DNA from: a virus
DNA: 64,000 bases
Strand: one strand, 5' to 3'
Virus record (IMG/VR): IMGVR_UViG_3300014325_000011
Coordinates: 51,126 to 115,125 of that record
Shown: in pieces, positions 13,767-63,555 of the stretch
Numbering within the stretch: the first letter of the stretch is position 1
How the letters are laid out: every line of letters begins with the position of its first letter
The notes under the pieces: generated by a model
Databases searched by the model: none
Seen by the model: the letters and a program-made list of their open reading frames with translations, nothing else
What the model was told of the DNA's origin: nothing
Made by a program: the position numbers and the translations under genes

Positions 13767-15382
13767 AGTGCGCTCCAGGTGAGGCGACCCAGCCGCAGTG
13801 CGCGGGCAGAAGAGGCAAGAGTTCGCAGCCGCGCCGTGTAGCCCAGCGCCGCCGAGCTCGATGGCAGGTTGGTCGTGTGCGTCGCGGCCAACGTCCCGTT
13901 GACCCAGAACCGGACCTGCGACACGGCGCTGTTGATCTCAATCAGCAGCTCGTACGCACTGTCCAGCACAATCGCCGACGTCGTGGTTGTGACTGTCGCC
14001 GTCGTCCCCGAGCTGGTGACTGTCCGCCAGACCGCCGTCCCGTCAACCCCGGTGTCATATCTGAGCCATGCACCCTGCGCGGTGCTGTACGAGCCGGTCG
14101 TCGCCGGACCGGCGTTGCCCGCAATGTCGGCGGAGACGAGACCCACCGCGAGCCGCGTCGAGGTGATCGCCGAAGGGTCGGTACGGATCCGGGCGTAGAC
14201 GTAGGGCGCCCACCTGGGTTGGATCACCCCGAACGGGGAGATCAGCCCGGCGTCAACCGACGAAGCCGCTGTGGTCGTGTACCGGACCAGCGGCCCTTCC
14301 GCCTGGTCGTCGGAGGTCGGCGTGATGTTGACGGTCGCGACGGTTGGTGGCGAGACCCCGTCGAGGATCAGCGTTGTATCGCCGCCCGGTGCGGCAACAG
14401 ACGCCGTCCGCCGGGTCACAGGGGCCAGCAGCTCATCCTCATGACCGACAGACGAGCGTGCCCGAGGGCGGCCGTTGCGCACCCAGATGACCGAACCCTC
14501 GGCAGTGGTGAACGACCCTTCCGCCTGGTGCGACCCGTCCGGGTTACCGGTCGGCGGGGTCGACGAGTTGCCGAGCGCGAGCACGTCCACGCCGCCGGCG
14601 GGGTCACCGGCCGCACCCCGGATACCGCCGCCAGCGGTGATGACAGATGCCCGGGTGGTGACTGTCGGCGCGGTACCGATCGCATCGGAGGGCTGCCCCG
14701 AATACATGGTCGCTCCGCCGACCTGGCCGACGCCGAAGACCGGGGCGCCGGCATAGTCGCGGGCGAGGATCAGGTTTTTCGTCGACGATTCTCTGCCGCG
14801 TACGACCAGCCCGTCATGGGAGGCGTCGGGTAGGAGGAGATTCCAAACGCCTTCGTTGGTGGAGCCGGTGCCACCGAAGTTCCGCTGAACGGTGCCACCG
14901 GACGTGTAGCTACCAGAGCCGGTCGTCGATTGGAGAGTGAACTGGGTGGGCGCAACCTTGGTGATCGTCTTGACGCCGTTGACGCCTGTGATGCCGCCGA
15001 CGTTCGCGATCGTCACCACGTCGCCCGTGCCGTAGCCATGGGATGCGCTGGTGGTGACCGTGACCGTTGTCGTACCGGTCACGTTGGAGATCGTCAGCGG
15101 CGCGTCACCGGTTTGGATCGTCCCGTCGGCGAGCAGACCCACCCGGGCCAACAGGTCTGCGGCCTGCTTGACCGCGAGCACCACCGCGGACGTGGAAGCG
15201 GCCGTGGTCTGGGTGGCTACAGCGCCGATGTCGGAGGGGGCGATCGCGTCGCCGCCGCCTGTGAGGTGCTGGTCGGCGTGGGTGTTGACCCGGTTGACGA
15301 TGGTCGTCAGGGCCGTGTTGAGGGTGGTGTCCCAGGCTGCCTGGTCGTGCGTTGGCAGCGTGGGGTTGATAGGTCCAGTCAC
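13763..15382 (-). CDS. Fibre-like protein with LamG-like C-terminal domain
   Basis: The N-terminus (TGPINPTLPTHDQAAWD, then NRVNTHADQHLTGGGDAIAP) is homologous to that of the 17.1-19.5 kb fibre gene and probably anchors both to the same virion site. A short beta repeat (TSASHGYGTGDVVTIANVGG) follows. The C-terminal ~190 residues resemble a jelly-roll carbohydrate-binding domain (LAVGLVSADIAGNAGPATTG, QVRFWVNGTLAATHTT). Translation starts at GTG inside a stable hairpin, with the Shine-Dalgarno-like GGGGGTGAG in the opposite arm. The gene overlaps the downstream spike gene by 4 nt. Confidence 0.8.
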   Translation of the reverse strand: MTGPINPTLPTHDQAAWDTTLNTALTTIVNRVNTHADQHLTGGGDAIAPSDIGAVATQTTAASTSAVVLAVKQAADLLARVGLLADGTIQTGDAPLTISNVTGTTTVTVTTSASHGYGTGDVVTIANVGGITGVNGVKTITKVAPTQFTLQSTTGSGSYTSGGTVQRNFGGTGSTNEGVWNLLLPDASHDGLVVRGRESSTKNLILARDYAGAPVFGVGQVGGATMYSGQPSDAIGTAPTVTTRASVITAGGGIRGAAGDPAGGVDVLALGNSSTPPTGNPDGSHQAEGSFTTAEGSVIWVRNGRPRARSSVGHEDELLAPVTRRTASVAAPGGDTTLILDGVSPPTVATVNITPTSDDQAEGPLVRYTTTAASSVDAGLISPFGVIQPRWAPYVYARIRTDPSAITSTRLAVGLVSADIAGNAGPATTGSYSTAQGAWLRYDTGVDGTAVWRTVTSSGTTATVTTTTSAIVLDSAYELLIEINSAVSQVRFWVNGTLAATHTTNLPSSSAALGYTARLRTLASSARALRLGRLTWSAL

Positions 15383-31699: not shown

Positions 31700-31981
31700 T
31701 CAGTTCCGGGCCTGCTCGGCTATCTCACGCCAGCGTCGGGCGTTCTCGGCAAGGGCGGCTGTCAGTGCATCCCGCAGCCGGGCGGCGTCCTGTTCGGACA
31801 GCTCGACGTACACCTCTGGGTCGGCGGCGGTATCCACGGTGGCGATCCGCACCGCATAGCCGGACGGTTCCGCGGCTGGGTGCATCCCGGTGCGGGCCAC
31901 GTCGAGTTCGCGGCCGTCACAGTCGCGGATCGGCTCTGGCAGGTCGAGGGAACTCCAGATGCTCACAGCGGCCTCCGCCAA
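31700..31981 (-). CDS. Small protein between terminase and portal
   Basis: The 93-residue acidic protein (MAEAAVSIWSSLDLPEPIRD..., YVELSEQDAARLRDALTAAL) ends in a helix and overlaps the terminase end by 19 bp. The LSEQDAARLRDALTAAL part resembles small regulatory or adaptor helices seen in actinobacterial proteins. Function unknown. Confidence 0.7.
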   Translation of the reverse strand: MAEAAVSIWSSLDLPEPIRDCDGRELDVARTGMHPAAEPSGYAVRIATVDTAADPEVYVELSEQDAARLRDALTAALAENARRWREIAEQARN

Positions 31982-43651: not shown

Positions 43652-44701
43652 CTAGAGGCCCAGACGTCGAGCGGGGTTGGTCGCGTCGAGCGCCCGACCC
43701 CGCTGCACGTAATTGCGGGCGATCTTGACCGACTTCCACCGCCCCTGTCGCATGATCTCTCGCTCTTCGACGCCCGCCCTCGCGGCAGTCGTCGCGAAGC
43801 CAGAGCGCAACGAGTGACCCGCGAAGTCGTCGGCATCTAGCCCCGCCGCCGTCGCGCGCCGCTTCACGATGAGGGCCACACTCTGCGGCGACAGGCGACG
43901 GGGGAGGATCTGCCCCGAGCGGGCGACGGGCCGGAACGCTGGACTGACATCGTGGCCAGAGTCGGCAAGCAGGGCACACCATGCCTGCCACGCATGTACC
44001 GGGCTGGTTGCCTCCCGGTCGCCGGGCGGCAGACCGATGATGTCGCCGTCGGAACGCTGGTCGGTCTTCGACGTGGCGATCAGCACTTCTAGCCCTTCGC
44101 CTGTGTCGACGATGTTGGCCAGGTCGAGTGCGGCCAGTTCGCTGCGCCGCATTGCTCCGGCAAGGCCGAACAGCAAGATTGCGCGGTCGCGGACATCGGC
44201 CGGCTTGTCAGGGTCGAGCCCGGCCACGAGGCGAACGACGGTGGCGGTGGTGGCCGCGGTCTTTGGCGCCGAAGAGAACTCCGGGCCACGGCGCGCGATG
44301 CCTTCAAGGACGAACTGCACGGCTGCGTCGCCCGTAGGGGAGTTGTGGCCGTGGGCCTTGTGCATGACGGAGATGGAGGAGACGCGACGGAGGATCGTCG
44401 ACGTCTTCGCGGGCCTACCGCCAGTCGCCTCAGTGCCGTTGTTCGCGAGGTCGGTGACGTAGCGCCAGACGGCATCGGGGGTGGCCGGTAGAGGATCGGA
44501 CTCGTGACGCGCACACCAGCCGACGAAGTGCGCCCAGTCGGTTTCGTAGGCGCGACGCGTGTTCGGGGCCATCGACCGGTCGGCGTACTCGCGGGCCTGT
44601 GCGTCCAGCGCGGCATTGATCTCAGCGACCGAGCCGGGGACGGGGACGAGCACGCCAGCCGACACCGTTTCCAAGGTCATTACCGACCACTCTCCCGCCA
44701 T
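43652..44701 (-). CDS. Tyrosine recombinase / integrase
   Basis: The 349-residue protein has a core-binding SAM-like domain (RSMAPNTRRAYETDWAHFVG, WRYVTDLANNG) and a catalytic domain with Arg in LAGAMRRSELAALDL, the H-x-x-R of DDFAGHSLRSGFATTAA and the nucleophilic Tyr of KIARNYVQRG. Family members do phage integration, excision or dimer resolution. It sits in the middle of phage genes rather than at an edge, so either this is not the integrase in use, or the genome is permuted. A perfect 10-bp palindrome lies 11 bp upstream. Confidence 0.85.
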   Translation of the reverse strand: MAGEWSVMTLETVSAGVLVPVPGSVAEINAALDAQAREYADRSMAPNTRRAYETDWAHFVGWCARHESDPLPATPDAVWRYVTDLANNGTEATGGRPAKTSTILRRVSSISVMHKAHGHNSPTGDAAVQFVLEGIARRGPEFSSAPKTAATTATVVRLVAGLDPDKPADVRDRAILLFGLAGAMRRSELAALDLANIVDTGEGLEVLIATSKTDQRSDGDIIGLPPGDREATSPVHAWQAWCALLADSGHDVSPAFRPVARSGQILPRRLSPQSVALIVKRRATAAGLDADDFAGHSLRSGFATTAARAGVEEREIMRQGRWKSVKIARNYVQRGRALDATNPARRLGL

Positions 44702-51729: not shown

Positions 51730-51971
51730 GCCGCCGCCTGCCTTCTGTATAGGAACGGCGTCTTGCGGAACCCGACCGTCCGATCCTGGCGGCGGTCGTA
51801 ACGCCACATCCCAGACGGTGTTTCTCCCTCATGCCACAGGGCGAAGAACCTGCGACGGGCCATCCGGATGCGGCGTGCGAACGCCTGATACTGGACGCCG
51901 AGCGCGTCGGCCGCGGCCTGATAGGTGTTGAACGTGGCGAGCGCGGCGAACCGGGCGACGCGGTCAGACAT
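51726..51971 (-). CDS. Small HTH-like protein
   Basis: The 81-residue product has an HTH-like region (FNTYQAAADALGVQYQAFAR) followed by basic RIRMARRRFFALWHEGE. It starts by overlapping the Cas4-like gene's end by 8 bp. Possibly a DNA-binding accessory protein. Confidence 0.65.
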   Translation of the reverse strand: MSDRVARFAALATFNTYQAAADALGVQYQAFARRIRMARRRFFALWHEGETPSGMWRYDRRQDRTVGFRKTPFLYRRQAAA

Positions 51972-53052
51972 CGCCCACCCCTGCGGGCTTCTTCGGGAAC
52001 GTCACGCGCAGAGAGACCGCGGTCGTCTTCGTGACCTGCTTGGTTGGAATCGGCCCGCAGACCAGTTCGTATTCGCGGCGCACCCGGTCCAGGTCTTCGA
52101 CCTCGTCGACCTTCGGGTTGCCGCCCGACCAGGCGATTTTGGTGCCGTCGTCGAGAGCAATCCTCTTCACGCCTTCAAGGTGGGGACGCCACTCCTCCAA
52201 CAGGGCTTCGGCTTCCCGCTTCTGCCAGGTCGCCGCCGCGTACTGCTGGGCCGCTTCGATCAGCACCGGATCGTCGGCGGTCGGGTACTTGCCCTCGGGG
52301 CCTCGACAGTCGGTCACCCGAGAACAGAACTGGCGACAGAAGAAGTGGTCCTCGTCGCGCAGGTCCCACATGTCGATGGCATGGCGGATCTCGGCGGTCC
52401 TGGCGTCGACTGTGTGCATCTCGAAGCGGTCGAGGATGCCAGCCATCTCCGCGGCGCGGGCGTTCTCCTGTGCGACCCGGTCGGCGGCCTCGTCGGCGAT
52501 CTCCTGTGAGAATGGTTCGCTGTACTCCCAGGCGTCGTCGAACTCGCCGTCGCGGGGCAGGCAGACCAGCGACACCCGGTCGATCTGATGGCCTTCGGCG
52601 CGCAACGCGGCGGCGCCCATGTGCAACTGGCCCCGGTAGCCGCTGCCGATGCCGTACTTCTGCATCCACACGATCTTCGACAGGCGAGGGAACTTCCAAT
52701 CGGAAAGGAGATTGGCGGTGATGTTGCCCAAGTCGATCGTGCAGGGCACGCCCCGGTAGACGGCCCGATGCTCCACCAGCAGACCGGGACGGCCCTTGAG
52801 GGCACGTTCGGCCGCAGCGTGGGCTGCCTTGCCGATCCAGGCGTCCAGACGGAGCCGCGGGTCGGACTCGGGGATGCCCAGCAGGCGCCACAGAGACTCG
52901 GCCCGGCAACCCATCGCCTGAGACGCCCCTGTCTGGATCTGCAAGGCGCGTGGGTCGGCGGCCTCCTTCTCGGCGAGCGCGGCCATCAGGAGGCCCAAGC
53001 CGGTCGTCGGGGCGGTGGTCTCGAACGTCGGCCGGTCATCGAGGGCGGTCAC
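51964..53052 (-). CDS. Cas4/RecB-like PD-(D/E)XK nuclease
   Basis: The 362-residue protein has the nuclease motifs GKAAHAAAERAL (His), HRAVYRGVPCTIDL (Asp) and ANLLSDWKF (D-x-K), and four cysteines for an iron-sulphur cluster: one in MGCRAESLW and three in FFCRQFCSRVTDC. This arrangement is that of Cas4-like phage exonucleases that prepare DNA ends for recombination. It is unrelated to any CRISPR array here. It sits with RusA- and Sak4-like genes. Confidence 0.85.
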   Translation of the reverse strand: MTALDDRPTFETTAPTTGLGLLMAALAEKEAADPRALQIQTGASQAMGCRAESLWRLLGIPESDPRLRLDAWIGKAAHAAAERALKGRPGLLVEHRAVYRGVPCTIDLGNITANLLSDWKFPRLSKIVWMQKYGIGSGYRGQLHMGAAALRAEGHQIDRVSLVCLPRDGEFDDAWEYSEPFSQEIADEAADRVAQENARAAEMAGILDRFEMHTVDARTAEIRHAIDMWDLRDEDHFFCRQFCSRVTDCRGPEGKYPTADDPVLIEAAQQYAAATWQKREAEALLEEWRPHLEGVKRIALDDGTKIAWSGGNPKVDEVEDLDRVRREYELVCGPIPTKQVTKTTAVSLRVTFPKKPAGVGDV

Positions 53053-53399
53053 TTTGGCTCCCCTTCGGGCTGAACCGAGATCTCAATCCACCAGTCGCAG
53101 TCGCATCCTTCGAGCTGCCCGCAACGGCCGACGGGGTGAGGGTTCTGCCATTCGAGGCGGACCGGGACCGCAGACATGGTGAGGAGGTCGGTGTAGTCGA
53201 CGCCCGGGTCGGCGTGGCAGTCCGCGCAGGACACCGATGCCTGCCCGCAGTCGATCTCCAAATGCCAGCGGTGGCCGCCGTCGCGCTTGCCGCATTCGGC
53301 TTGGCGGGCTTCCTGCTCACGCCAGGCGACCGCACTCGGGCTGTTGTCGTTCGCGGCCAGTTCCTCGGGCGTGGCAACACGCCAGTTGAGCGCGGTCAC
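53049..53399 (-). CDS. 116-residue Cys/His protein
   Basis: From GTG 53399 the product is MTALNWRVATPEELAANDNS, then AECGKRDGGHRWHLEIDCGQ, SVSCADCHADPG and GCDCDWWIEISVQ. Many Cys/His suggest two metal sites. Overlaps both neighbours by 4 nt. Function unknown. Confidence 0.7.
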   Translation of the reverse strand: MTALNWRVATPEELAANDNSPSAVAWREQEARQAECGKRDGGHRWHLEIDCGQASVSCADCHADPGVDYTDLLTMSAVPVRLEWQNPHPVGRCGQLEGCDCDWWIEISVQPEGEPK

Positions 53400-53590
53400 A
53401 GGACAGTTCCTTTCGGGCGCGGGTCCTTCGGTGACGGGCCAACAAGTCCAGCCGAATGCAGCACCTGCCACACGTCGGGATGGGTCTCAAAGACGTGCCA
53501 GACCGCGCGGGCCTCGGTCTCGGCCGCGACCAGCAGGCCGTAGGGCACAGTCCAGTCGCAGTGCTGGCAAGCGATCACGTCGGCGGTCAT
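53396..53590 (-). CDS. 64-residue protein with CxxC-His motif
   Basis: ATG 53590 overlaps the upstream stop (TGATG). MTADVIACQHCDWTVPYGLL, EARAVWHVFETHPD resembles a C2H2-type finger (C-x2-C ... H-x4-H). Such C-x2-C...H-x3-5-H small fingers are common in actinophages. Function unknown. Confidence 0.65.
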   Translation of the reverse strand: MTADVIACQHCDWTVPYGLLVAAETEARAVWHVFETHPDVWQVLHSAGLVGPSPKDPRPKGTVL

Positions 53591-54060
53591 CAGGTCTGCC
53601 CCTGACCAGCTAGACGCATTTCCTGGTTCACGGTCGCGTTGGTCGACCGGTTGGACTCCTGCATGGTCTTGAGGCGCCACATCTCGTTCTTCGCCGTGTC
53701 AGCGATGATGTTGGCTGTCTCGGCGGCGAGCAGAAGATCGGCCGTTTCCAGGTCGGCGATCTTCTTGCGGACGTCCATCGGACCTTCGGCGCGTAGGAAC
53801 GCCTCCGCTTTCGCCCGTTCGTAGGCAACCTGCGTCTGAGCGGCGGCCTTTGCGAGGCGGGACCATTCCTCGCTCTGCTCTTTGACCAGGTCGTCGAGCA
53901 GGTCGAACTTGGCCTGTACCTCGATCGGGCTTGGCAGTTCCCGGCGGTGCTTGCGCCAGCCGGTGCCGTCCCAGATCCAGCCCTGGCGGCATTCTCCGAG
54001 CCGGGGCCGGGTGTCGTGGCGGATCTCCCCGGTCTCCCGGTCCACCGTTGGGGCGGTCAT
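53590..54060 (-). CDS. 156-residue helical protein of recombination module
   Basis: Residues 20-45 have an aromatic segment (GWIWDGTGWRKHRRELPSP). Residues 50-150 are coiled helix (KFDLLDDLVKEQSEEWSRLA, ADLLLAAETANIIADTAKNE). Genes of this size and shape accompany phage Cas4-like and Sak4-like genes, but their role is not known. Confidence 0.7.
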   Translation of the reverse strand: MTAPTVDRETGEIRHDTRPRLGECRQGWIWDGTGWRKHRRELPSPIEVQAKFDLLDDLVKEQSEEWSRLAKAAAQTQVAYERAKAEAFLRAEGPMDVRKKIADLETADLLLAAETANIIADTAKNEMWRLKTMQESNRSTNATVNQEMRLAGQGQT

Positions 54061-55022
54061 GCTGCGACCTCAAACAGACCCGACTCGGGCTCGGCCGGCC
54101 GTCGTGGAGGAACCCTAGATGGACCCCGGTAGCCGGATACCTCTCGGCAAGCTCGAACCCGGGCCAGCGGTGAATCCTCGACCTCGCCCAGAGTCCACGA
54201 ACAGTCCCACAGCCCGGCACGGCTATGGAGCCTCTGCCGCCAGCCCTCCGCGAACGCCGGACAGTTCGCCTCCGAAACGTGGGTCGGTGTGCAGCCAGCC
54301 TTGAACCTGCCGTCGAACGACCAGGCCATCGAGTCGGCGGAGGCGAGCATCCGGCCGTAGCGGACCAGACCGCTGGTCTTACAGCCGAAGCCGTGCAGGG
54401 GAAACTCGGCGGCGAACGCGGCGACGATGGCGCCGATCTCGGCGGTGTCCTGCCGGCGGCATACCGATCCGAGGCCGACAAGTTCGTAGGCGTGGAGGTC
54501 AACCCCGGCCTGTGCGTACAGGTCGGCGCAGTGCTCGTAGTCGCCCAGCGTCCAACCCTGAAGCACTGGCATGACGGGGCACGACTCGTCCGACACCTTC
54601 GGCCACAGGGCCCGCAGCGTCTGGAAGTTGTCGACTGTGCGGGCCTGATGCTCGCGGACCGTCAAGCCGGTCTTGGCCAGCATGAACGGCTCACACATCC
54701 AGTCCTGTGGCGCCGCCCAGTCCATCCGTCCAACCGTCGCCTCGTAGCGGGCCAGCGCCTCCACATAGGCCTGTGGTGGCGTGCGCCACTCGCCATATTT
54801 CGACAGTTCGGTGAACCCACCGGAGTCGATTGCGTAGGGGCCGACGGCCTTTGCCGGCGAGGTGATCGGCGCGAGAGCGCGATGCGAGACGAACAGGGGC
54901 CAGCGTGCCCAGCCCAACCATGATGGGTGATGGCTGCCCAGGTAGAAGCACATCCCGTCCGTGGATGTGTGCTGGTCCAGTCCGTCGATGTCAGCTTCGT
55001 CGAACAGCGTTATGCCGGTCAT
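54057..55022 (-). CDS. DpdA-like DNA 7-deazaguanine transglycosylase
   Basis: ATG 55022 gives 321 residues. TGT-fold motifs are visible: PYAIDSGGFTELSKYGEWRT with the catalytic-type Asp (DSGGF), DWAAPQDWMCEPFMLAKTGL, PVMPVLQGWTLGDYEHC, ELVGLGSVCRRQDT, and FPLHGFGCKTSGL, MAWSFDGR. Bacterial tRNA-guanine transglycosylases and the DNA-acting DpdA proteins share these. The phage setting and lack of tRNA-type zinc motif favour DpdA, which exchanges guanine in DNA for preQ0-type bases. No preQ0 biosynthesis gene is in the window, so the base would come from the host. Confidence 0.75.
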   Translation of the reverse strand: MTGITLFDEADIDGLDQHTSTDGMCFYLGSHHPSWLGWARWPLFVSHRALAPITSPAKAVGPYAIDSGGFTELSKYGEWRTPPQAYVEALARYEATVGRMDWAAPQDWMCEPFMLAKTGLTVREHQARTVDNFQTLRALWPKVSDESCPVMPVLQGWTLGDYEHCADLYAQAGVDLHAYELVGLGSVCRRQDTAEIGAIVAAFAAEFPLHGFGCKTSGLVRYGRMLASADSMAWSFDGRFKAGCTPTHVSEANCPAFAEGWRQRLHSRAGLWDCSWTLGEVEDSPLARVRACREVSGYRGPSRVPPRRPAEPESGLFEVAA

Positions 55023-55375
55023 GCGACACCGGCCTTCCGGTCGTACACGGTGATCCAATCGTGAAGCCCCGACCACTGAACCGGCCGATGCTCGGCCACC
55101 TCGACCCACCCCTTGTCGAGCGCGGCGAAGAAGTTGTCGTCCGCGCAGCAGCCGCCGTCACCCTCACCGATGTAGATGACCCGGTTGCCGGTGTAGAAGT
55201 CGAGCGCGGCGGCGGCCATCGGCGAACCGTAGGGCGGCCAGCAAAGGAACAGCGCCCGGTCCGGGAAGTCTTTCGCCGCCCGGGTGTAGCCGGTGGCCAC
55301 CGGGTGGTAGGTGGCACGGAGCCGCTGGCCGACGGGCAGCTTGCCGATCGGCGCCAGGTCCAGCGAATCAGACAT
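55019..55375 (-). CDS. Methyltransferase-like small protein next to DpdA
   Basis: ATG 55375 gives 118 residues with DRALFLCWPPYGSPMAAAAL, NRVIYIGEGDGGCCADDNFF. The CWPPY resembles the catalytic (D/N/S)PP(Y/F) loop of DNA methyltransferases, and the rest looks like half of a Rossmann fold. A complete SAM-binding site is not evident at this length. Overlap with the DpdA-like gene suggests a shared DNA-modification role, which is inference. Confidence 0.6.
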   Translation of the reverse strand: MSDSLDLAPIGKLPVGQRLRATYHPVATGYTRAAKDFPDRALFLCWPPYGSPMAAAALDFYTGNRVIYIGEGDGGCCADDNFFAALDKGWVEVAEHRPVQWSGLHDWITVYDRKAGVA

Positions 55376-55706
55376 CGCCATCCACCGCCCGAATCCGCTC
55401 CCGCAGGTCGGCGAGCATCGCCTCACGGTTCGGATCGTCCAAACCGAACCGGCTGGCAGCCGTCCGCTCGCGCGGGAGTAGCCAATCCACCATCACCGGC
55501 AGGTTCACCACATGCGGATCGCCGTCAGGGTCGAAGACGAGCACACCTCGCAGGTGCCGATGCTCGGCCGCTTCTTCCGTAGTGGCCATCCGCCAGCCGG
55601 CCGGCAGATGGTTCGCGAGGTCTTCGATCATCGACCGTTCGATCTGACCCGCTGGAGTAGCAAGACGGGCCTTCGCCCAGTCCGACGTGTAGTCAGGGGC
55701 ATTCAT
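55368..55706 (-). CDS. 112-residue protein, function unknown
   Basis: MNAPDYTSDWAKARLATPAG, EDLANHLPAGWRMATTEEAA, VLVFDPDGDPHVVNLPVM and DPNREAMLADLRERIRAV. Mixed alpha/beta, no Cys. Overlaps both neighbours by 4-8 nt. Function unknown. Confidence 0.7.
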   Translation of the reverse strand: MNAPDYTSDWAKARLATPAGQIERSMIEDLANHLPAGWRMATTEEAAEHRHLRGVLVFDPDGDPHVVNLPVMVDWLLPRERTAASRFGLDDPNREAMLADLRERIRAVDGDV

Positions 55707-55873
55707 GCCGCCACCCACCTACGGTCGTGGGACACGGCCCGGCCCTCGTCCTGCAAGGCACGCAGACCATCCCGAACCTGCTGGACGTCCAGTCCGGTCA
55801 GGTGGGCGAGTTTGCGAGCCCGCACCGGCTGGGAACCGAGGACCCCGGCCAGCGCCCGCTCCACGGCGGTCAT
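55703..55873 (-). CDS. 56-residue winged-helix-like protein
   Basis: ATG 55873 overlaps the end of the Sak4-like gene and the TGA overlaps the next ATG. MTAVERALAGVLGSQPVRAR, KLAHLTGLDVQQVRDGLRAL, QDEGRAVSHDRRWVAA is a compact helix-helix-wing DNA-binding fold, including the RWV end typical of winged helices. Confidence 0.7.
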   Translation of the reverse strand: MTAVERALAGVLGSQPVRARKLAHLTGLDVQQVRDGLRALQDEGRAVSHDRRWVAA

Positions 55874-56976
55874 GCCGCACGCTCCGCAGGGGCGGAGCCG
55901 TTCGCGGCGACCTGCGCCAGCGCCGGACGTGGCGCCAGTTCCTTACCGCGCAACTTCAAAAGCTCACCGAGGGGCATCGTCGTGTCGTCCAGCCCGTTGC
56001 CGACCATCAGCCTGTCCAGCCCGTCGGCCACGGCCTGCCGGTACATCGCGCCGACCTGCTCGAAGGTCGCCGTGTTTGACAGGGCGTCGTCGCGGAGCTT
56101 CGCCGCCCGCGGGTCCTCGCCGCCCTCCTCTGGGAGCAGGGCACCAACGGTCGTTGACACGATGTCGCGGACCTGCGTGTTCTGCGGGTCGAACCGAATC
56201 GCATCGAAGATCAGCCATTCAAGGAGACGGCCATCCGCCTCCTTGACCAACACTGGCTGAGACTCGTCGATCCCCGGGCGGATACCGGCATGTACCGAAC
56301 GGGCGCCGATGATCGTCGGCGGTTCAGTGCGGGACAGCCGCATCCACACCGTCGCGTCAAAGCCAAGGTTCTTCTGCCCGTCGACCCGGTAGTCCTTCTG
56401 CCGCTCGACAGGCTTTCCCGCATCGTCGAACGACGCGATCTCCTTGCCCCTGGCAAGCAGGATCACGATCCCGGGAAAAGTCAGGAACTTGGTCATCAGC
56501 GTGCCATGACGACGATTCGCGTCGTTCCACAGATCAACCGTCGGCTTGACCTCGACATCCTCGCCGACCCGGCGCCCCCGCTTCGCGAGCCGTTCCCGCT
56601 GCCGGTCGGACGCCCACGCGGACAGCCCAGCCCACACATCCGACATGGTGTCGACAACAAGGACGGCCGGCTTCTCCCCGCTGTCCTTCGCCCACTGGGC
56701 GTACGCCTTGACTTCGTCAACTCGGCGGACCAGCGTCGACCAGTCGCTTTCACCTTCGACGATCTCGAACCGGGCGCCGGGCCATGCCCCGTACTCGTCG
56801 GCACTGCCCTCGCCTCGGTCCAACCAGAACGTGCGACCGACCCGATCCGACGCGGACAGGATGACGGCCGCAGTTGTCTTCCCGCACTTTTCCGGGCCTT
56901 CGACGAGGACAACCGGGCAGGACACCCGACCGGTTGGGCGGCGGGTCGGAACCTGCGGTGGCTGGGGGGCGCTCAT
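55870..56976 (-). CDS. Sak4-like RecA-fold ATPase (recombination)
   Basis: The 368-residue protein has Walker A VEGPEKCGKTTAAVIL, Walker B PAVLVVDTMSDVW and GIVILLARGKEI, DATVWMRLSRTE in the RecA-like core; C-terminal 100 residues are helical. Sak4 proteins anneal single-stranded DNA with a partner SSB and replace RecA-type functions in phages. It lies early in the operon together with Cas4-like and RusA-like genes, forming a recombination set. Confidence 0.85.
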   Translation of the reverse strand: MSAPQPPQVPTRRPTGRVSCPVVLVEGPEKCGKTTAAVILSASDRVGRTFWLDRGEGSADEYGAWPGARFEIVEGESDWSTLVRRVDEVKAYAQWAKDSGEKPAVLVVDTMSDVWAGLSAWASDRQRERLAKRGRRVGEDVEVKPTVDLWNDANRRHGTLMTKFLTFPGIVILLARGKEIASFDDAGKPVERQKDYRVDGQKNLGFDATVWMRLSRTEPPTIIGARSVHAGIRPGIDESQPVLVKEADGRLLEWLIFDAIRFDPQNTQVRDIVSTTVGALLPEEGGEDPRAAKLRDDALSNTATFEQVGAMYRQAVADGLDRLMVGNGLDDTTMPLGELLKLRGKELAPRPALAQVAANGSAPAERAA

Positions 56977-57338
56977 GCGGCCACCGCCAGTGGCGTGACG
57001 ATGCCGTACTCGGCGTTCAGTTCGGCGAGTCTCGCCGCCGACGCCTCCCGCAGCGCGTCCCGCAGCGCCAACATCCGGCGAAGCGACATCATGACCGACT
57101 CGCCGTTGCCCAGCTCCCAGCCGATCAGCAGCAGGTCCAGTTCGGCGTCGTACCGGCCGACAGCGGCCGGACTCGTCGAACCATCCGCCGTGATGCGGGC
57201 CACGGTCGCCCGAGCTTCCTCCCGGTCCTGCGCCGTCGGCTCGATCGAACCGGTCACACCGACCTGTTCCATCAGATCGGCCGACAGGCGCAGAGCGCGC
57301 GCCGTCGGGTTACTCTTCTGGGTCAAGGCCCTCTCCAT
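56973..57338 (-). CDS. 121-residue helical early protein
   Basis: The product has ARALRLSADLMEQVGVTGSI, QDREEARATVARITADGSTS and MMSLRRMLALRDALREASAA. Helical and Arg/Ala-rich, with an acidic middle. It overlaps the Sak4-like gene by 4 nt and follows a hairpin after the HTH gene. Function unknown. Confidence 0.7.
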   Translation of the reverse strand: MERALTQKSNPTARALRLSADLMEQVGVTGSIEPTAQDREEARATVARITADGSTSPAAVGRYDAELDLLLIGWELGNGESVMMSLRRMLALRDALREASAARLAELNAEYGIVTPLAVAA

Positions 57339-57405: not shown

Positions 57406-57744
57406 TCAAGCGGCCTCAGCGGTAGGCCGTGGATAGCGGCCGGACTGGTGCCTCAGCCGCGCCGCCCACGTCTCACTCGCCGCGTAGACCTCGGCGTCCG
57501 CCTGGTCGATGACGAAGGTGCCGCGCGCGCCGACCCGTTTGGCTACGAGCCACAGGCCTGGGTCTGGCCGCTGGCCGGTGCGGTCCCATTCGTCGGCGCC
57601 AGCGGCGGCGGCCCGAGAGGCGGTTCGGGGAGTGCAGCCGAGGATTCGGGCGGCTTCGGCGGTCCCGATCCACTGTGGTTCGGCGGCCAGGTCGACGGCG
57701 CGGAGGTGTTCTCCGGTGTCGTCGGCGGGCTGGTCGATGTCCAT
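57406..57744 (-). CDS. Excisionase-like HTH protein, first early gene
   Basis: The 112-residue protein carries an HTH_17/MerR-like DNA-binding unit (QWIGTAEAARILGCTPRTAS, AGADEWDRTGQRPDPGLWLV) and a C-terminal segment (GTFVIDQADAEVYAASETW). Such proteins serve as excisionases or Cro-like repressors. Its ATG lies 6 nt after a -10 box, so the mRNA is probably leaderless. It is divergent from the repressor-like gene across the dyad operator, the classical place of a Cro/Xis gene. Confidence 0.8.
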   Translation of the reverse strand: MDIDQPADDTGEHLRAVDLAAEPQWIGTAEAARILGCTPRTASRAAAAGADEWDRTGQRPDPGLWLVAKRVGARGTFVIDQADAEVYAASETWAARLRHQSGRYPRPTAEAA

Positions 57745-57748
57745 GGAT

Positions 57749-57792
57749 CTATTGTCCTAGACTGTCCTTGATCCGTCAAGTATCTAGGACAA
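57749..57792 (-). promoter_or_regulatory. Early promoter with nested dyad operator
   Basis: Minus-strand -35 TTGACG (57779-57774) and -10 GACAAT (57756-57751) are 17 nt apart. The start codon of the first early gene lies 6 nt past the -10, implying a leaderless message. TTGTCCTAGA (57752-57761) and TCTAGGACAA (57783-57792) form a perfect 10-bp dyad around the promoter, and CTTGA-TCCG-TCAAG lies inside over the -35. Confidence 0.75.
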
Positions 57793-57897: not shown

Positions 57898-58881
57898 GTG
57901 GCCCACGACGACGGCGGAGGCCGCTACCTCACCGCCGCCCAGACCCAGCGCCTAGCCGACGCCATGGTCCGACGTCGGACCACACTCGGCGGAGCCGGCC
58001 ACCTCATCTGGCCCCTGTCCCGCAACACCCTCAATCTGTGGTCCGCGGGCAAAGGTCACCGCGCCCAGATCGGCCGACTCGCAGACGTCGACCAGGTCAT
58101 GTGGTGGGAACCAGGCTCGGCCCTCGCCTACGCGCGCGGCGAAGGCCCACTACGACCACTACCGGACCCCACCGACTTCCAGTGGAAGATCTTCGTCGCC
58201 CGGTGTGAGCGGAGGCTCCGCTACGGGGACGTCGCACTCGAAGCCGGCCACCGGGCCGACGGCACACCACAACTCACCGCCGACGACGTCGAACGGTTCG
58301 AGCGGCACCCGCTCTACGAACCGCCCCCCGCCGATCTGATCGCCGCACTCGCCGCCAGTCTCGGCCTGAACGCCGACCATCTGGCCCGGCTCGCCGCAGA
58401 ATCGGTCCAGCCCTCCGGCGACGCCGCCACCGAGAAGGCCATCGGCCGGTTCCTCCACCAGGTCCACAGCCTGCCGCTCCACTGGCAGGCCGCCGTGGTT
58501 GACACGGCAACGTTCCTCGCCGGCTCCGATGAGATCCGGCAGGTTGTCGACCTGCTCGCAGACCTACCCGAACACACCAGAGTTGGAACGGTCCGCACGA
58601 TCCGCCGACTCCTGGCCGACGTGGAACTTCGACAGGTCGTTGAACGGTTCGGCCGCCTCGCCGGGCCTTCACGCATAGACGCCCTGGAGGCGTTTACGGC
58701 GGTCGTCCGCGGCCTGTCACGCACGGCGATTACGGTCGAACCGGTCGACTATGAGGAGGAAGCGGTCGCGATCGCACGGAACGCGGAGGACGAAACGCTC
58801 GTCGAACAGTTCCGCGACGAGCAGGCCGATGATCTGGCCGCCGAGGTCGACGAGCGGCCGGGGGGCGACGAGGCCGGCTAG
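57898..58881 (+). CDS. Candidate immunity repressor
   Basis: The 327-residue protein starts at GTG with YLTAAQTQRLADAMVRRRTT, LGGAGHLIWPLSRNTLNLWS, an atypical DNA-binding-like start. Long helical domains (DFQWKIFVARCERRLRYGDV, LIAALAASLGLNADHLARLA) follow. The second half (AVVDTATFLAGSDEIRQVVD, RVGTVRTIRRLLADVELRQV) could be the multimerisation region. It is divergent from the early operon and next to the operator, the usual repressor position. The repressor call is inference from place. Confidence 0.6.
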   Translation: MAHDDGGGRYLTAAQTQRLADAMVRRRTTLGGAGHLIWPLSRNTLNLWSAGKGHRAQIGRLADVDQVMWWEPGSALAYARGEGPLRPLPDPTDFQWKIFVARCERRLRYGDVALEAGHRADGTPQLTADDVERFERHPLYEPPPADLIAALAASLGLNADHLARLAAESVQPSGDAATEKAIGRFLHQVHSLPLHWQAAVVDTATFLAGSDEIRQVVDLLADLPEHTRVGTVRTIRRLLADVELRQVVERFGRLAGPSRIDALEAFTAVVRGLSRTAITVEPVDYEEEAVAIARNAEDETLVEQFRDEQADDLAAEVDERPGGDEAG

Positions 58882-59359: not shown

Positions 59360-59565
59360 CTACCAGCCGCGGGCGCGCCATTCGGCGAGGTGGGGGCGCT
59401 CCCGGCCGAGGGTGGAGTCCTTGCCGTGGCCGGGGTAGATCCAGGTGGTGTCGGGCAGCGGGCCGAAGACCTTGGCCTCCAGGCCGTCCATCAGACTCCG
59501 AAAATCAGCCGGAAGTGTTGTCCGCCCGGGGCCGCCCGGGAACAGGCAGTGTCCCAGCCGGCTAA
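59360..59565 (-). pseudogene. 3' fragment of a metallo-beta-lactamase-fold hydrolase
   Basis: The frame ends with a clear MBL-hydrolase C-terminus: LFPGGPGRTTLPADFRSLMD, GLEAKVFGPLPDTTWIYPGH, then GKDSTLGRERPHLAEWRARG. Homology stops abruptly upstream of LFPGG at about 59,565, just before the serine integrase gene; the missing N-terminal ~150 residues with the HxHxDH zinc site are not nearby. This is how a host gene looks when an element has inserted into it, so the break is a candidate att junction. Confidence 0.7.
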
Positions 59566-59576
59566 CATGACCGACC

Positions 59577-61040
59577 ATGGTGAACGGCGACGAAAACCAC
59601 CTCGAACCCGCCATCTCCTACGGCCGCGAATCCTACGACCGGTACAACGACGAACACACCGTCGACGCCCAGCTCGCCGGCAACCGCGACGCCGCACCCC
59701 ACCTCGGCCTGCGGATCGTCACCGAACGGCGCGACGATGACATCTCGGCCCACGACGGCACCCACCGGCCCGGCTACCAGCAGGTCGTCGACGACATCCG
59801 CGGCGGCGTCGCCCGAGTCGTCCTCGTGCTGCACACCTCACGGCTGTGGCGGGACCGGGTCGAACGATCCAAGGACATCAACCTGTTCGGCACCTACGGG
59901 GTGCGGATCGTCGCCCGCCGCGGACCCCACCTCGATCTGTCGACAGCGGCAGGCCGCGGACTCGCCGGGCTGATGGGCGAGTTCGACACGATGGAGTCCG
60001 AGACGAAAGGCGAACGGGTCCGCGACGAGCTGGCGCTGCGTGCCGCCGCCGGCCGGTCGATCGGCCCGGTGGCCTACGGCTGGCGCCGGGAAAACGTGTT
60101 CGACGACCGGGGCCGTCGGGTCGACTTCAACGACGTGGAGCATCCCGAGCAGGCCGACGTGGTCCGGTGGATCGTCGATCAGCTTCTCGCCGGCAAGTCG
60201 ATCAAATGGGTGGTGGCCAGTCTCAACGACCGCGGCATCGTCGCCCCCGGCGGAGGGCTGTGGCTGCCTTCCGGGGTTCGGAAGGTGGCTCTGCGGCCGG
60301 CGAACATCGCCCGGAAGGTCTACAAGAGTGCGGACATCGGTCGGGCAGTGTGGCCAGCGATCGTCGACGAGGACAAACATCATCGGGTTGTCGCCCTGCT
60401 GAACGATCCAGTGCGGCTCACGTCCCGGTCGGGTGCCCGGCAGCATGCGCTCACCTACAACGCCGACGTCGGCCGGTGCGGGGTGTGCGAGGGACCGCTG
60501 GCTGTCCACACGGTCAAGACCGGGCGACGGCGGACGGCGCATGTGCTATACGCCTGCCAGAAGGGCTGCGTCGGCCGCAACCAGGAGAAAGTCGACCTGA
60601 TGGTCGAAGGGATGGTGATCGGTGTGCTGGCCCGTCCCGACTGGCGTCGCCGGTTCGACCGGAAAGACACCCGCGCGGTGGCAGCCCGAACCCGAGCGGA
60701 GGCGCTGCGGGCACGACTGCTGCAAGCCACCGACGACTACGACGAGGACCGGATCACCCACGAACAGTTCCTACGTCAGACAACTCGGCTCCGGGACCGG
60801 ATCGCCGAACAGGAGGAGATCGCCCGTCGGGCACAGCCCGGGGTGGGGCCGGAGCTTGCCGAGGGGCTGACGGACGGGCCGGTTGAGGATCGGGTGCGTC
60901 GGTGGCGGGCGCTGTCGGCGGGTCAGAAGCAGCGCCTGTTGGCCGCGTTGCGGGTCCAGGTTCGGATTCTGCCGGTGCGTCGGAAGGGTGCCGGGTTTGA
61001 TCCGACGTCGGTGCTGATCGTCGAGTTGGACGATGCCTGA
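59577..61040 (+). CDS. Large serine recombinase (integrase)
   Basis: The 487-residue protein has the catalytic Ser in ISYGRESYDRYND, the Arg-rich active site stretch VLHTSRLWRDRVERS and GEFDTMESETKGERVRDELA, a recombinase domain (GPVAYGWRRENVFDDRG), a zinc ribbon (CGVCEGPL ... YACQKGC) and a coiled-coil region near 390-430. It catalyses attP x attB integration with a two-base crossover. It directly follows the truncated MBL gene and is followed by a small gene under a copy of the early operator. Confidence 0.9.
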   Translation: MVNGDENHLEPAISYGRESYDRYNDEHTVDAQLAGNRDAAPHLGLRIVTERRDDDISAHDGTHRPGYQQVVDDIRGGVARVVLVLHTSRLWRDRVERSKDINLFGTYGVRIVARRGPHLDLSTAAGRGLAGLMGEFDTMESETKGERVRDELALRAAAGRSIGPVAYGWRRENVFDDRGRRVDFNDVEHPEQADVVRWIVDQLLAGKSIKWVVASLNDRGIVAPGGGLWLPSGVRKVALRPANIARKVYKSADIGRAVWPAIVDEDKHHRVVALLNDPVRLTSRSGARQHALTYNADVGRCGVCEGPLAVHTVKTGRRRTAHVLYACQKGCVGRNQEKVDLMVEGMVIGVLARPDWRRRFDRKDTRAVAARTRAEALRARLLQATDDYDEDRITHEQFLRQTTRLRDRIAEQEEIARRAQPGVGPELAEGLTDGPVEDRVRRWRALSAGQKQRLLAALRVQVRILPVRRKGAGFDPTSVLIVELDDA

Positions 61041-61042
61041 TC

Positions 61043-61094
61043 TTGTCCTAACTCGTCCGAATCTATTGACCGATCCAGGACACTATAGGACACT
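61043..61094 (+). promoter_or_regulatory. Second copy of the early promoter/operator
   Basis: TTGACC (61066-61071), a 17-nt spacer and GACACT (61089-61094) align base by base with the promoter at 57749-57779: TTGAC-GATC-AGGACA-TAGGACA are shared. TTGTCCTA (61043-61050) lies upstream as in the first copy. The GTG of the next gene follows 6 nt after the -10, again implying a leaderless message and the same regulator. Confidence 0.7.
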
Positions 61095-61100
61095 GGGTGG

Positions 61101-61286
61101 GTGCTTTCGACCGATCAGACGCCAGCCGAACCGGCCGTATGGACAAGCGGGGACGCTGCCATCGACGCCTATGTAGCTGAGATCGTCGCCCGCTGGTCGG
61201 CGCCCACCGAGCAGCAGATCGCCCAGATCGAGGCGATCCTGTTCCCGGATGCGATCGACCCGCAGCCTGTCCGCCGCGCGGCCTAA
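61101..61286 (+). CDS. 61-residue acidic protein under early-type promoter
   Basis: GTG 61101 starts MLSTDQTPAEPAVWTSGDAA, then YVAEIVARWSAPTEQQIAQI, EAILFPDAIDPQPVRRAA. Helical and acidic in the middle. Its expression signal copies that of the excisionase-like gene and it follows the integrase, so it could be a directionality or regulatory factor. It ends just before a perfect terminator. Confidence 0.65.
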   Translation: MLSTDQTPAEPAVWTSGDAAIDAYVAEIVARWSAPTEQQIAQIEAILFPDAIDPQPVRRAA

Positions 61287-61296
61287 ACCCCCCTGA

Positions 61297-61346
61297 ACGA
61301 TGTTGTGGGGCCCCTGATGAACCTGGCAGGGGCCCCACAACATCGT
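61297..61346. terminator. Perfect 20-bp bidirectional terminator-like hairpin
   Basis: ACGATGTTGTGGGGCCCCTG (61297-61316) and its exact complement (61327-61346) flank a 10-nt loop. It lies between the convergent 61101 and 61354 genes and should stop transcription from both sides; no long U-tract. Confidence 0.8.
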
Positions 61347-61353
61347 CTCGGGA

Positions 61354-61611
61354 TCAGATCCGGTCAGACGCACACCCGGCGGCGAGTTCCGCGACCCGGA
61401 CGGCGATCCACTCGGCGATCGTCAGATCGCCCTTCGACTGGCCGCACGGTGCGCAGCACGGCGCCAGGTTGACGAGCGCATCGGTGCCATGTGGCCGGCT
61501 CCGCGGAATCATATGGTCGAGATGGTCGGCGGGGCGCGCGCCGCAGTAGACGCACATCCCACCGACCTGCGCAGTCAGCCGTTCGCGGCATCCCGCCGAC
61601 CGGACGCTCAC
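61354..61611 (-). CDS. HNH endonuclease (small)
   Basis: The 85-residue protein has the complete HNH layout: MCVYCGARPADHLDHMIPRS with the LDH core, then ALVNLAPCCAPCGQSKGD. It is a minimal HNH nuclease, close in size to packaging-associated or free-standing phage HNH proteins. It overlaps the gene upstream via GTGA. It may belong to the element carrying the serine integrase. Confidence 0.8.
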   Translation of the reverse strand: MSVRSAGCRERLTAQVGGMCVYCGARPADHLDHMIPRSRPHGTDALVNLAPCCAPCGQSKGDLTIAEWIAVRVAELAAGCASDRI

Positions 61612-61964
61612 CCCACAACCTCCACCGGGTCGGCCGGGTCGACGGCGAGCAGTTCCCGCAGATAGCGGAGCACGTCGAACCGGATAACCGCGGCGATCAT
61701 CTGCCCGTCGGTCTGCTCCGGTAGCCGGCGGATGTACGGCTGGGCGTCGTACTCGTCAGCGACCTTGTCGAGGGCTTCGACCGCGGCGAGAACGACCGCC
61801 CCCGGGATCGCACCCACATCCGGCGGCAATGGGGGAAGGTCGTCCTCCTGGCCGCGTTCGCCAGACTCATCCGAGGCTGCGGGGTCACTGTCGACCGGCT
61901 GGCATTCGTCAGTCCAATGGTCGGAGACGGGCTGGCCGCAGCGGGAGCAGACCGGCCGGCTCAC
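61608..61964 (-). CDS. 118-residue acidic protein with N-terminal zinc motif
   Basis: MSRPVCSRCGQPVSDHWTDE starts a CxxC-His motif. Residues 25-50 are acidic and disordered, and the rest is helical (AAVEALDKVADEYDAQPYIR, MIAAVIRFDVLRYLRELLAV). Overlaps both neighbours by 4 nt. Function unknown. Confidence 0.7.
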   Translation of the reverse strand: MSRPVCSRCGQPVSDHWTDECQPVDSDPAASDESGERGQEDDLPPLPPDVGAIPGAVVLAAVEALDKVADEYDAQPYIRRLPEQTDGQMIAAVIRFDVLRYLRELLAVDPADPVEVVG

Positions 61965-62182
61965 CGGGCACCACCCGGGGTGGTGCAGGAGCAGAGGGTT
62001 TCAGGGCCGGCACCGGTGTCGATGTGGTTGCAGCCCTTGTTGTCGTGGTCCGCCTTCGGGTGGGGGCATTCACCGCAGCCCAGGGCCGCCGGGTAGTCGG
62101 CAGCCTTGGCAATCTCGGCGACCCGGGCCTTGAGGGTCGGCCTCGGGTGGAACAGCGGCCGGATGACCGTTGCGGCGCTCAC
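61961..62182 (-). CDS. 73-residue Cys/His-rich protein
   Basis: From GTG 62182 the product is MSAATVIRPLFHPRPTLKAR, then CGECPHPKADHDNKGCNHID and ETLCSCTTPGG. This C-x2-C...H...C-x-H...C-x-C set is probably a zinc fold. Frames further upstream are shadow. Function unknown. Confidence 0.65.
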   Translation of the reverse strand: MSAATVIRPLFHPRPTLKARVAEIAKAADYPAALGCGECPHPKADHDNKGCNHIDTGAGPETLCSCTTPGGAR

Positions 62183-62319
62183 CGGGCAGGCTCCGTCGAA
62201 GACGTGTCGGCCGTGCAGACCGTGTCGTCCGCGTGGATCGGCGCGCCGCCGGTCTCCTGCCAGGCGGTACGGCCACAGGGGCAGGTGACGACGGACGCGC
62301 CCTCGGGGAGGCCGCTCAC
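62179..62319 (-). CDS. 46-residue Cys-containing protein
   Basis: GTG 62319 overlaps the upstream TGA. MSGLPEGASVVTCPCGRTAW, then DDTVCTADTSSTEPAR. Small CPCG motif. The GTGA couplings at both ends support it. Function unknown. Confidence 0.6.
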   Translation of the reverse strand: MSGLPEGASVVTCPCGRTAWQETGGAPIHADDTVCTADTSSTEPAR

Positions 62320-62516
62320 CGGGTGCCACCCTCGCCACCGGACAGGTGACGCTCCAGCATCTCGGCGAGGGTCTTCGCGGCGTCCTCCTCGCCCTCATCC
62401 GAACCGGACGACTGGGACTGGGAGGTGTCACGGAAGTTGATGGCACGATGGAACACGGGCTCGACCTCCTGCGGTCGGGTCAAGGGCCCTGGTGCCCTGC
62501 CGGCAAGCTCCGGCAC
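62316..62516 (-). CDS. 66-residue acidic protein
   Basis: MPELAGRAPGPLTRPQEVEP, SSGSDEGEEDAAKTLAEMLE, then RHLSGGEGGTR. Highly acidic middle, probably disordered with one helix. First gene of this minus-strand group, downstream of the GntR operator region. Function unknown. Confidence 0.6.
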   Translation of the reverse strand: MPELAGRAPGPLTRPQEVEPVFHRAINFRDTSQSQSSGSDEGEEDAAKTLAEMLERHLSGGEGGTR

Positions 62517-62743: not shown

Positions 62744-62770
62744 ATGAACCGCAACGAGTCGCAGCCGTGA
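62744..62770 (+). CDS. 8-codon leader ORF coupled to GntR gene
   Basis: ATG 62744 encodes MNRNESQP and its TGA overlaps the GTG start of the GntR gene (GTGA). It could couple or limit GntR translation. Such a short ORF could also be chance. Confidence 0.35.
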   Translation: MNRNESQP

Positions 62771-63555
62771 ACGCCGACCGGCGAGTGCCGAACTACCAGC
62801 GGATCGCGGACGCGCTGATGGCCCGCATCGACTCTGGCGAGTTCCCGTCTGGCTCCCGGCTCCCCACCGAACCCCAGTTGAAGGCCGAGTACGACGTCTC
62901 GTCGACGACGGTTCGCAACGCCGTCAAGGCGCTGGCTGCGGCTGGCATCGTGGAGACCCGCCACGGAGCCGGCACGTTCGTCATCGAGCGGAAGCTGTTG
63001 ACGATCAACGCGACGACGACCGAAGACCTTGACCGGCGCCGAGGCATCGTCGCCCAAGACTCGTGGAGCACCGACGTCAAGGAAGCCGGGCGCGAGCCGG
63101 ACCAGCGGTTCGAGTGCTTGAACGTAGCCGCGTCCGATGAGCAGGCGAAGCTGCTAGGTGTCGAGCCCGGTGCGTGGCTGGTCATGCGCCGCTGCTGGCG
63201 AACCGTTGATGGCATCCCAGCGTCCATCGAAGCCAGCGTGTTTCCGCGCTGGCTCGTCGACGCCCTACCTGAGCTTGGCTCTCCGCATGACATCGCACAA
63301 GGCACGACGTCCTTCGTCGCCGAGCGGGGTTACCCGATGGAAGTCCACCTCGACTACGTCTCTGGACGACCGTTCACCCGTGAGGAAGAGTCGTTCTTCC
63401 GGGCACCTGCCGGCGTGCAGGCACTCATCCGCGGGCGGGTCAGCTACGACAAGCCAGATGGGCGCGTATTGCGGATCATGGAGACGGTGTACCGCAACGA
63501 CATGCACAAGATCCTGTATGTCGTTGCCGGGCGCGGGAACGCGACGTCACGGTGA
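62767..63555 (+). CDS. GntR-family (HutC/KorSA-like) transcription regulator
   Basis: The 262-residue protein has the GntR winged helix (NYQRIADALMARIDSGEFPS, GSRLPTEPQLKAEYDVSSTT, VRNAVKALAAAGIVETRHGA) and a UTRA/HutC-type effector domain (LGVEPGAWLVMRRCWRTVDG, SIEASVFPRWLVDALPELGS). KorSA-type members control transfer and replication in actinomycete integrative elements. A dyad in its upstream gap is its probable operator. The start at GTG overlaps a leader ORF; a GNAT gene follows with a GTGA overlap. Confidence 0.85.
   Translation: MNADRRVPNYQRIADALMARIDSGEFPSGSRLPTEPQLKAEYDVSSTTVRNAVKALAAAGIVETRHGAGTFVIERKLLTINATTTEDLDRRRGIVAQDSWSTDVKEAGREPDQRFECLNVAASDEQAKLLGVEPGAWLVMRRCWRTVDGIPASIEASVFPRWLVDALPELGSPHDIAQGTTSFVAERGYPMEVHLDYVSGRPFTREEESFFRAPAGVQALIRGRVSYDKPDGRVLRIMETVYRNDMHKILYVVAGRGNATSR

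What the first reader, a model, noticed from the sequence alone, without database searches (positions are those of the whole stretch)
61043..61094. Near-identical second copy of the early promoter/operator beyond the integrase
The 29 bases from TTGAC to the second TAGGACA align with the promoter at 57.75 kb and the following start codon is at the same distance. The matched pair ties the integrase side to the repressor side. It predicts that the 61-residue gene at 61101 is switched with the early operon.
Basis: seen in the sequence. Interest (0 to 1): 0.75.

Follow-up and report, generated by a model that had tools for sequence, protein, structure and literature searches.

The report
Phage switch site beside the integrase
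A phage of soil actinobacteria carries three near-identical copies of its early on/off switch, and one of them controls a single 61-residue gene next to the enzyme that inserts the phage into its host; that gene belongs to a small-protein family that usually sits behind such integrases and may be the factor that lets the phage cut itself out again.

Summary
TTGACCGATCCAGGACACTATAGGACA (61066-61092, +) matches TTGACGGATCAAGGACAGTCTAGGACA (57753-57779, -) at 23 of 27 bases; no shuffle gave a match. In both, the start codon lies exactly 35 nt after the first T of TTGAC and 6 nt after a -10-like GACAAT/GACACT, which suggests leaderless genes. It is not a pair but a trio. A third site, identical to the early one over 30 bp, heads a rightward operon about 95 kb away in the same record. 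Nothing else in 115 kb comes close (next best 3 bits, against 49-55). A related phage keeps the early and left-arm copies unchanged; its record stops before the integrase.

attP lies between the two window sites, so in a lysogen they would sit at opposite prophage ends. The 61-aa gene is a one-gene unit: operator-promoter, leaderless GTG, strong hairpin. Its product is a divergent member of an unannotated small-protein family. Twelve of 17 genomic members found by sequence alone lie 0.12-0.68 kb behind a serine integrase, on the same strand. Best reading: the repressor-controlled copy keeps this protein, probably the integrase's recombination directionality factor, off until induction. Co-regulation is well supported by sequence; the excision role is inferred. 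Nothing was tested at the bench.

The parts
61043..61094 (+). Site B: promoter-operator of the 61-aa gene; half-sites TTGTCCTA 61043-61050, AGGACA 61077-61082, TAGGACA 61086-61092; -35-like TTGACC 61066-61071, 17-bp spacer, -10-like GACACT 61089-61094
57751..57792 (-). Site A: early promoter-operator of the leftward operon; TTGACG 57779-57774, 17 bp, GACAAT 57756-57751; upstream half-site TTGTCCTA 57792-57785
   Evidence: identical copy in relative G001
61101..61286 (+). 61-aa gene, leaderless GTG; divergent member of an integrase-linked small-protein family; candidate recombination directionality factor
   Evidence: first possible start in its frame; GC by codon position 0.71/0.52/0.79 and codon score +14 in this frame only; rank 1 of 2002 record ORFs with the family matrix
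61292..61352 (+). Perfect 20-bp inverted repeat with 10-nt loop (61297-61346) in a longer hairpin, probable terminator; shared with the convergent HNH gene
   Evidence: -49.7 kcal/mol, z -8.6
59577..61040 (+). Large serine integrase, 487 aa
   Evidence: PF00239, PF07508; phrog_95 integrase 3e-68
59360..59551 (-). 3' end of an MBL-fold hydrolase gene carried beside attP; inferred crossover near CCGCCCGGGAA, about 59532-59542
   Evidence: 66% identical over 62 aa to the hydrolase fragment beside the integrase of Larva, Kratio and relatives; junction comparison
57406..57744 (-). 112-aa HTH protein, first gene of the early leftward operon, leaderless ATG
   Evidence: weak HTH_17 match E=0.0098; identical in G001
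57898..58881 (+). Divergent 327-aa orphan, candidate repressor
   Evidence: position; no family match; no relative in 299 genomes of the order
51964..57338 (-). Rest of the early leftward gene block: 121-aa ORF, AAA ATPase 55870-56976, exonuclease 51964-53052 and small ORFs; transcript extent inferred

Best explanation
Site B is one of three copies of a single phage early operator-promoter. In the lysogen a phage repressor, most likely the divergently encoded 327-aa protein, binds the TAGGACA half-sites that overlap the promoter hexamers and keeps three units silent: the leftward recombination operon, the rightward left-arm operon, and the single 61-aa gene behind the serine integrase. Integration at attP puts sites A and B at opposite prophage ends, so the integrase-end gene needs its own operator copy. 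On induction all three fire together. The 61-aa protein then acts with the integrase, most likely as its recombination directionality factor, so that attL x attR excision happens only when the lytic programme starts. Shown from sequence: the three sites, their geometry, conservation of A and C, the one-gene unit, and the family link to serine integrases. Inferred: repressor binding, leaderless starts, co-induction, and the excision role. About 0.8 for co-regulation, about 0.5 for the RDF role.
For: Sites and chance. Conservation of A and C in a second phage. Identical start distance and sigma-70-like hexamers with 17-bp spacing. One-gene unit with hairpin. attP between the sites, by comparison with Kratiovirus phages. 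Family membership of the 61-aa protein: where a matrix from 16 independent genomic members gives it 8.6 bits against -1.0 for the next of 2002 ORFs and 0 of 3000 shuffles. Family linkage: a small gene of the family follows every MBL-site integrase examined, and 12 of 17 independent members follow a serine integrase on the same strand. Precedent: the 62-aa phiJoe RDF is adjacent to int, and the phiRv1 and SPBc RDFs lie within one or two ORFs of it (PMC5311408); SPbeta sprB is thought to be released by derepression of a repressor-site promoter (PMC4191935).
Against: No binding, RNA or excision data. The B copy could not be checked in the relative, whose record ends inside the candidate repressor gene. 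Default profile HMMs of the family did not find the 61-aa protein; only the ungapped position matrices did. A pairwise BLASTP with Larva gp40 gave nothing. Similarity of the family to the verified phiJoe RDF is only suggestive (shuffle P about 0.004, negative score). In Larva no copy of the presumed early operator was seen upstream of the small gene, so operator control of this gene is not a general rule. Four of 17 family members were seen beside no integrase, and one lies beside a tyrosine integrase. The repressor is an orphan with no usable structure model.
Confidence: 0.6

Rival explanations
1. Site B is a repressor-controlled early promoter, but the 61-aa protein is not the RDF. It is another integrase-linked factor (for example one that adjusts integrase level or activity), and the RDF is the 112-aa HTH protein of the early operon, which looks more like an excisionase.
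For: The 112-aa protein has weak HTH_17 and phrog_66 'excisionase and transcriptional regulator' matches. In Lentzea an HTH_17-like excisionase-type gene stands just before the small gene. In LastHope the small gene is 50 nt behind int and could be co-transcribed with it.
Against: Matches of the 112-aa protein are below significance (E=0.0098 and 0.08). The strong family link to serine integrases is to the small protein, not to an HTH protein.
Confidence: 0.25
2. The shared motif is mainly the binding site of a phage-coded activator (for example the 112-aa protein) or a phage-specific promoter class, so the three units are switched on together by activation instead of off together by a repressor.
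For: Three identical sites at three unit heads and an early HTH product would fit equally. No repressor binding is shown and the 327-aa protein has no recognisable domain.
Against: The inner half-sites lie within the spacer and over the -10 hexamer, where a bound protein would block polymerase; reasonable -35 and -10 hexamers are already present; the divergent gene next to site A is in the usual repressor position.
Confidence: 0.15
3. Site B is a relic or chance copy of the early promoter without a role, and the 61-aa ORF is not a gene.
For: B differs from A at 4 of 27 bases and could not be checked in a relative.
Against: Zero expected by chance; all three half-sites, the hexamer spacing and the start distance are kept; the ORF has the codon statistics of a gene and family similarity.
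Confidence: 0.05

Closest known systems
SPbeta SprA/SprB with SPBRE repressor sites (Bacillus subtilis; PMC4191935)
   Same: Small RDF gene near a serine integrase, expected to be released with other units when a repressor leaves repeated operator sites
   Different: sprB is reached from a promoter 5 kb upstream on induction and has a sporulation promoter; here the small gene has its own operator copy directly in front of the start codon
phiJoe integrase and gp52 (Streptomyces; PMC5311408)
   Same: 62-aa RDF gene adjacent to int near attP
   Different: gp52 is divergent from int on the other side of attP; the 61-aa gene follows int on the same strand; sequence similarity only suggestive
Kratiovirus mycobacteriophages (Larva, Kratio, Agent47)
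   Same: MBL hydrolase 3' end, serine integrase (about 40% identical), then a small gene (gp40) in the same order and orientation
   Different: Repressor and early operon lie on the integrase side; no early-operator copy seen in front of the small gene
TP901-1 CI operators and genetic switch
   Same: One repressor acting on several operators beside divergent early and lysogenic genes (compared from general knowledge; papers seen only as titles and abstracts)
   Different: Here the three sites lie at unit heads up to 98 kb apart in the record, each with three half-sites; no sequence relation tested

Membership tests
Phage early operator-promoter regulon | Several near-identical sites at heads of transcription units, above chance | tested here: met
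   three sites, next best score 3 bits against 49-55
Phage early operator-promoter regulon | Binding elements overlap the promoter | tested here: met
   half-sites lie in the spacer and over the -10 hexamer; hexamers 17 bp apart; sequence evidence only
Phage early operator-promoter regulon | Sites conserved in relatives while flanks change | tested here: inconclusive
   A and C identical in G001, C within an 82%-identical region; B not covered
Phage early operator-promoter regulon | Bound by the phage repressor | not testable with these tools
   needs binding assay
Recombination directionality factor of a serine integrase | Small phage gene regularly linked to serine integrase genes | tested here: met
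   12 of 17 independent members 0.12-0.68 kb behind a serine integrase, same strand
Recombination directionality factor of a serine integrase | Similarity to a verified RDF | tested here: inconclusive
   phiJoe gp52: shuffle P about 0.004, negative score
Recombination directionality factor of a serine integrase | Promotes attL x attR and inhibits attP x attB recombination | not testable with these tools
   needs recombination assay
Integrase-linked small-protein family (includes phrog_24177) | Core EYxExVxxxAPPLTxEQRxRIAxLLR | tested here: met
   rank 1 of 2002 ORFs with two position matrices; default HMMs missed it and it does not match phrog_24177, so a divergent member
MBL-site serine integrases | Large serine integrase beside an MBL hydrolase 3' end | tested here: met

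The most novel reading that the evidence does not exclude
The widespread but unannotated small proteins with the core APPLTxEQRxRIAxLLR behind actinobacterial serine integrases are a common RDF family, and in this phage its gene has been given a private copy of the early operator so that excision is wired directly to the lytic switch.
Probability: 0.42. Interest if true: 0.72.

Novelty: new member of a known kind. Interest (0 to 1): 0.52.

Why it matters
RDFs are the missing half of most serine-integrase tools, and the literature states that no sound generalisation exists for finding them (PMC5311408). An operator copy that places a one-gene unit under the lytic repressor is independent evidence for what that gene does. 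With the family linkage it gives a short, testable list of RDF candidates for many integrases of actinobacteria and their phages. It also shows a simple solution to a layout problem: when attP lies between repressor and integrase, integration separates them, and a second operator keeps both ends under one switch.

Tried and rejected
Scanned 84,980 genomes for the operator: no match. Two viral-contig scans, one strict and one relaxed, gave only G001. Relatives of the repressor: none among viral contigs, though that scan could not use the GTG start, and none in 299 genomes. Considered that the record holds two tandem elements joined at the MBL fragment; rejected because Kratiovirus virion genomes carry the same fragment beside int with phage genes on both sides and because the operators link both sides. 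Looked for near-repeats upstream of the small gene in 17 prophage stretches, Larva and LastHope: inconclusive, since the test did not single out site B either. Full MBL domain search of the record: none. Repressor structure from single sequence: mean pLDDT 37, unusable. Small-protein model: two helices, core pLDDT about 90; not searched further because a helical hairpin matches everything.

Full report
OBSERVATION. The two sites are as described. Site B, 61066-61092 (+), reads TTGACCGATCCAGGACACTATAGGACA; site A, 57753-57779 (-), reads TTGACGGATCAAGGACAGTCTAGGACA; 23 of 27 bases agree. The degenerate pattern has two matches in the window and none in 100 shuffles. Read as sigma-70-like promoters, both have TTGAC[G/C], a 17-bp spacer and GACAAT or GACACT; the scanner lists A, while B falls just short of its threshold. 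The start codons, ATG 57744 and GTG 61101, lie 6 nt after the -10-like hexamer and 35 nt after the first T of TTGAC in both cases. That is the geometry of leaderless transcripts, which are common in actinobacteria (general knowledge). In the frame of the 61-aa gene a TAG at 61086-61088 precedes the GTG, so 61101 is the first start available.

THREE SITES. The window lies in a 115,125-base virus record. A search of the whole record found a third site at 14281-14307 (+) that shares exactly 30 bp with site A and nothing around it. It stands in front of a rightward run of small genes that includes a cytosine methylase. A matrix from the three sites scores them 49-55 bits; the next best place in the record scores 3. 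Each site also has an upstream inverted half-site. The offsets of the three half-sites are 0/+32/+42 in B and C and 0/+22/+32 in A, a difference of 10 bp or about one helical turn. No other cluster of three such half-sites occurs in the record.

CONSERVATION. One other viral contig carries the motif: IMGVR_UViG_3300025941_000016, 99,986 bases. It has sites A and C unchanged, with the same gene order and patchy 71-98% identity to this record. Its record ends inside the candidate repressor gene, so the integrase side and site B cannot be checked. No genome in GTDB r220 matches.

WHAT LIES BETWEEN. Between the sites are the candidate repressor (57898-58881), the 3' end of an MBL-fold hydrolase gene (59360-59551, -) and the serine integrase (59577-61040, +). 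Mycobacteriophages Larva, Kratio, Agent47 and relatives have the same block: hydrolase 3' end, serine integrase 38% identical by tblastn, then a small gene. Prophages in Mycobacterium and Mycolicibacterium show the hydrolase end beside int as well; Lentzea carries two such hydrolase ends farther off. The fragment is therefore read as part of attP, and the record as the unintegrated form. It follows, as inference, that integration would move A and B to opposite ends of the prophage.

THE 61-AA GENE. It has the codon statistics of a gene in this frame only and is followed by a perfect 20-bp inverted repeat that folds at -49.7 kcal/mol, z -8.6; the next gene is convergent. It is thus a one-gene unit. 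No family library recognises it. All MBL-site relatives and also LastHope have a small gene behind int with the core APPLTxEQRxRIAxLLR. A position matrix of ten members ranks the 61-aa product first of 2002 ORFs of the record, above all 5000 shuffles. To avoid circularity the family was sought by profile in 150 genomes of the order. A matrix built only from 16 of the resulting genomic members gives the 61-aa product 8.6 bits, the next ORF -1.0, and no shuffle reaches it. MAFFT places it in the same register, and the model gives two confident helices over the core. Against this, default HMMs did not find it, so it is a divergent member.

FAMILY LINKAGE. Seventeen genomic members found without reference to integrases were examined with up to 5 kb on either side. 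Twelve lie 122-681 bp behind a serine integrase match on the same strand. A thirteenth lies beside a tyrosine integrase, judged by its sequence. Such linkage, the size and the position fit an RDF; known RDFs of phiRv1, SPBc and phiJoe are 58-110 aa and lie near int (PMC5311408). The verified phiJoe RDF gp52 aligns with the core at shuffle P about 0.004 but with a negative score: suggestive only.

MECHANISM. The simplest account is a repressor that binds all three operators in the lysogen. Induction would fire the recombination operon, the left-arm operon and the 61-aa gene together, and the last product would turn the integrase to excision. A precedent for repressor-released RDF expression is SPbeta sprB (PMC4191935). 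Not shown: which protein binds, co-induction, and the excision role. The main rival keeps the co-regulation but gives the RDF role to the 112-aa HTH protein of the early operon.

VERDICT. As an operator system it is a member of a known kind. The added value is the third site, the attP between the sites, and the link of the controlled gene to an unannotated integrase-associated family that is a good RDF candidate. No paper found here describes that family, but most subscription journals are not in the library.

Noticed in passing
window 31963-34191 (-), with 32207-32899 (-): The terminase large-subunit ORF holds an intein (PF14890 E=1.5e-10) whose middle is also read in another frame as a 230-aa HNH endonuclease (phrog_15471 8.8e-29): a homing endonuclease gene apparently nested out of frame inside an intein that stays open.
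   Followed up: partly
window 43652-44701 (-): A tyrosine recombinase (PF00589, phrog_1) in the same phage as the serine integrase; its role is unclear.
   Followed up: partly
window 59360-59551 (-): attP carries about 64 codons of an MBL hydrolase 3' end, so integration probably restores the host gene, as in Kratiovirus phages, although serine integrases need only a short site.
   Followed up: partly
window 62767-63555 (+) and 61354-62516 (-): A GntR/UTRA regulator (phrog_10724 2e-34) faces a leftward run of small ORFs including an HNH nuclease; the repeats CACTAGTGA/TCACTAGTA near 62.6 kb look like its operator.
   Followed up: no
window 9571-12183 (-): 870-aa Ala/Thr/Ser-rich repetitive protein among the structural genes with no PHROG match.
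   Followed up: no
record G000:14307-14356 (outside the window): Between site C and the first gene a possible short leaderless leader peptide (GTG ... CCC GCA CCG CAC GGG CTC TGA) is kept in both phages although the bases before it differ.
   Followed up: no
L066, L072: Two members of the small-protein family with a variant core (RIAAEAPPLTPEQRAKLRGLF) have no integrase found nearby; possibly a separate branch with another job.
   Followed up: no
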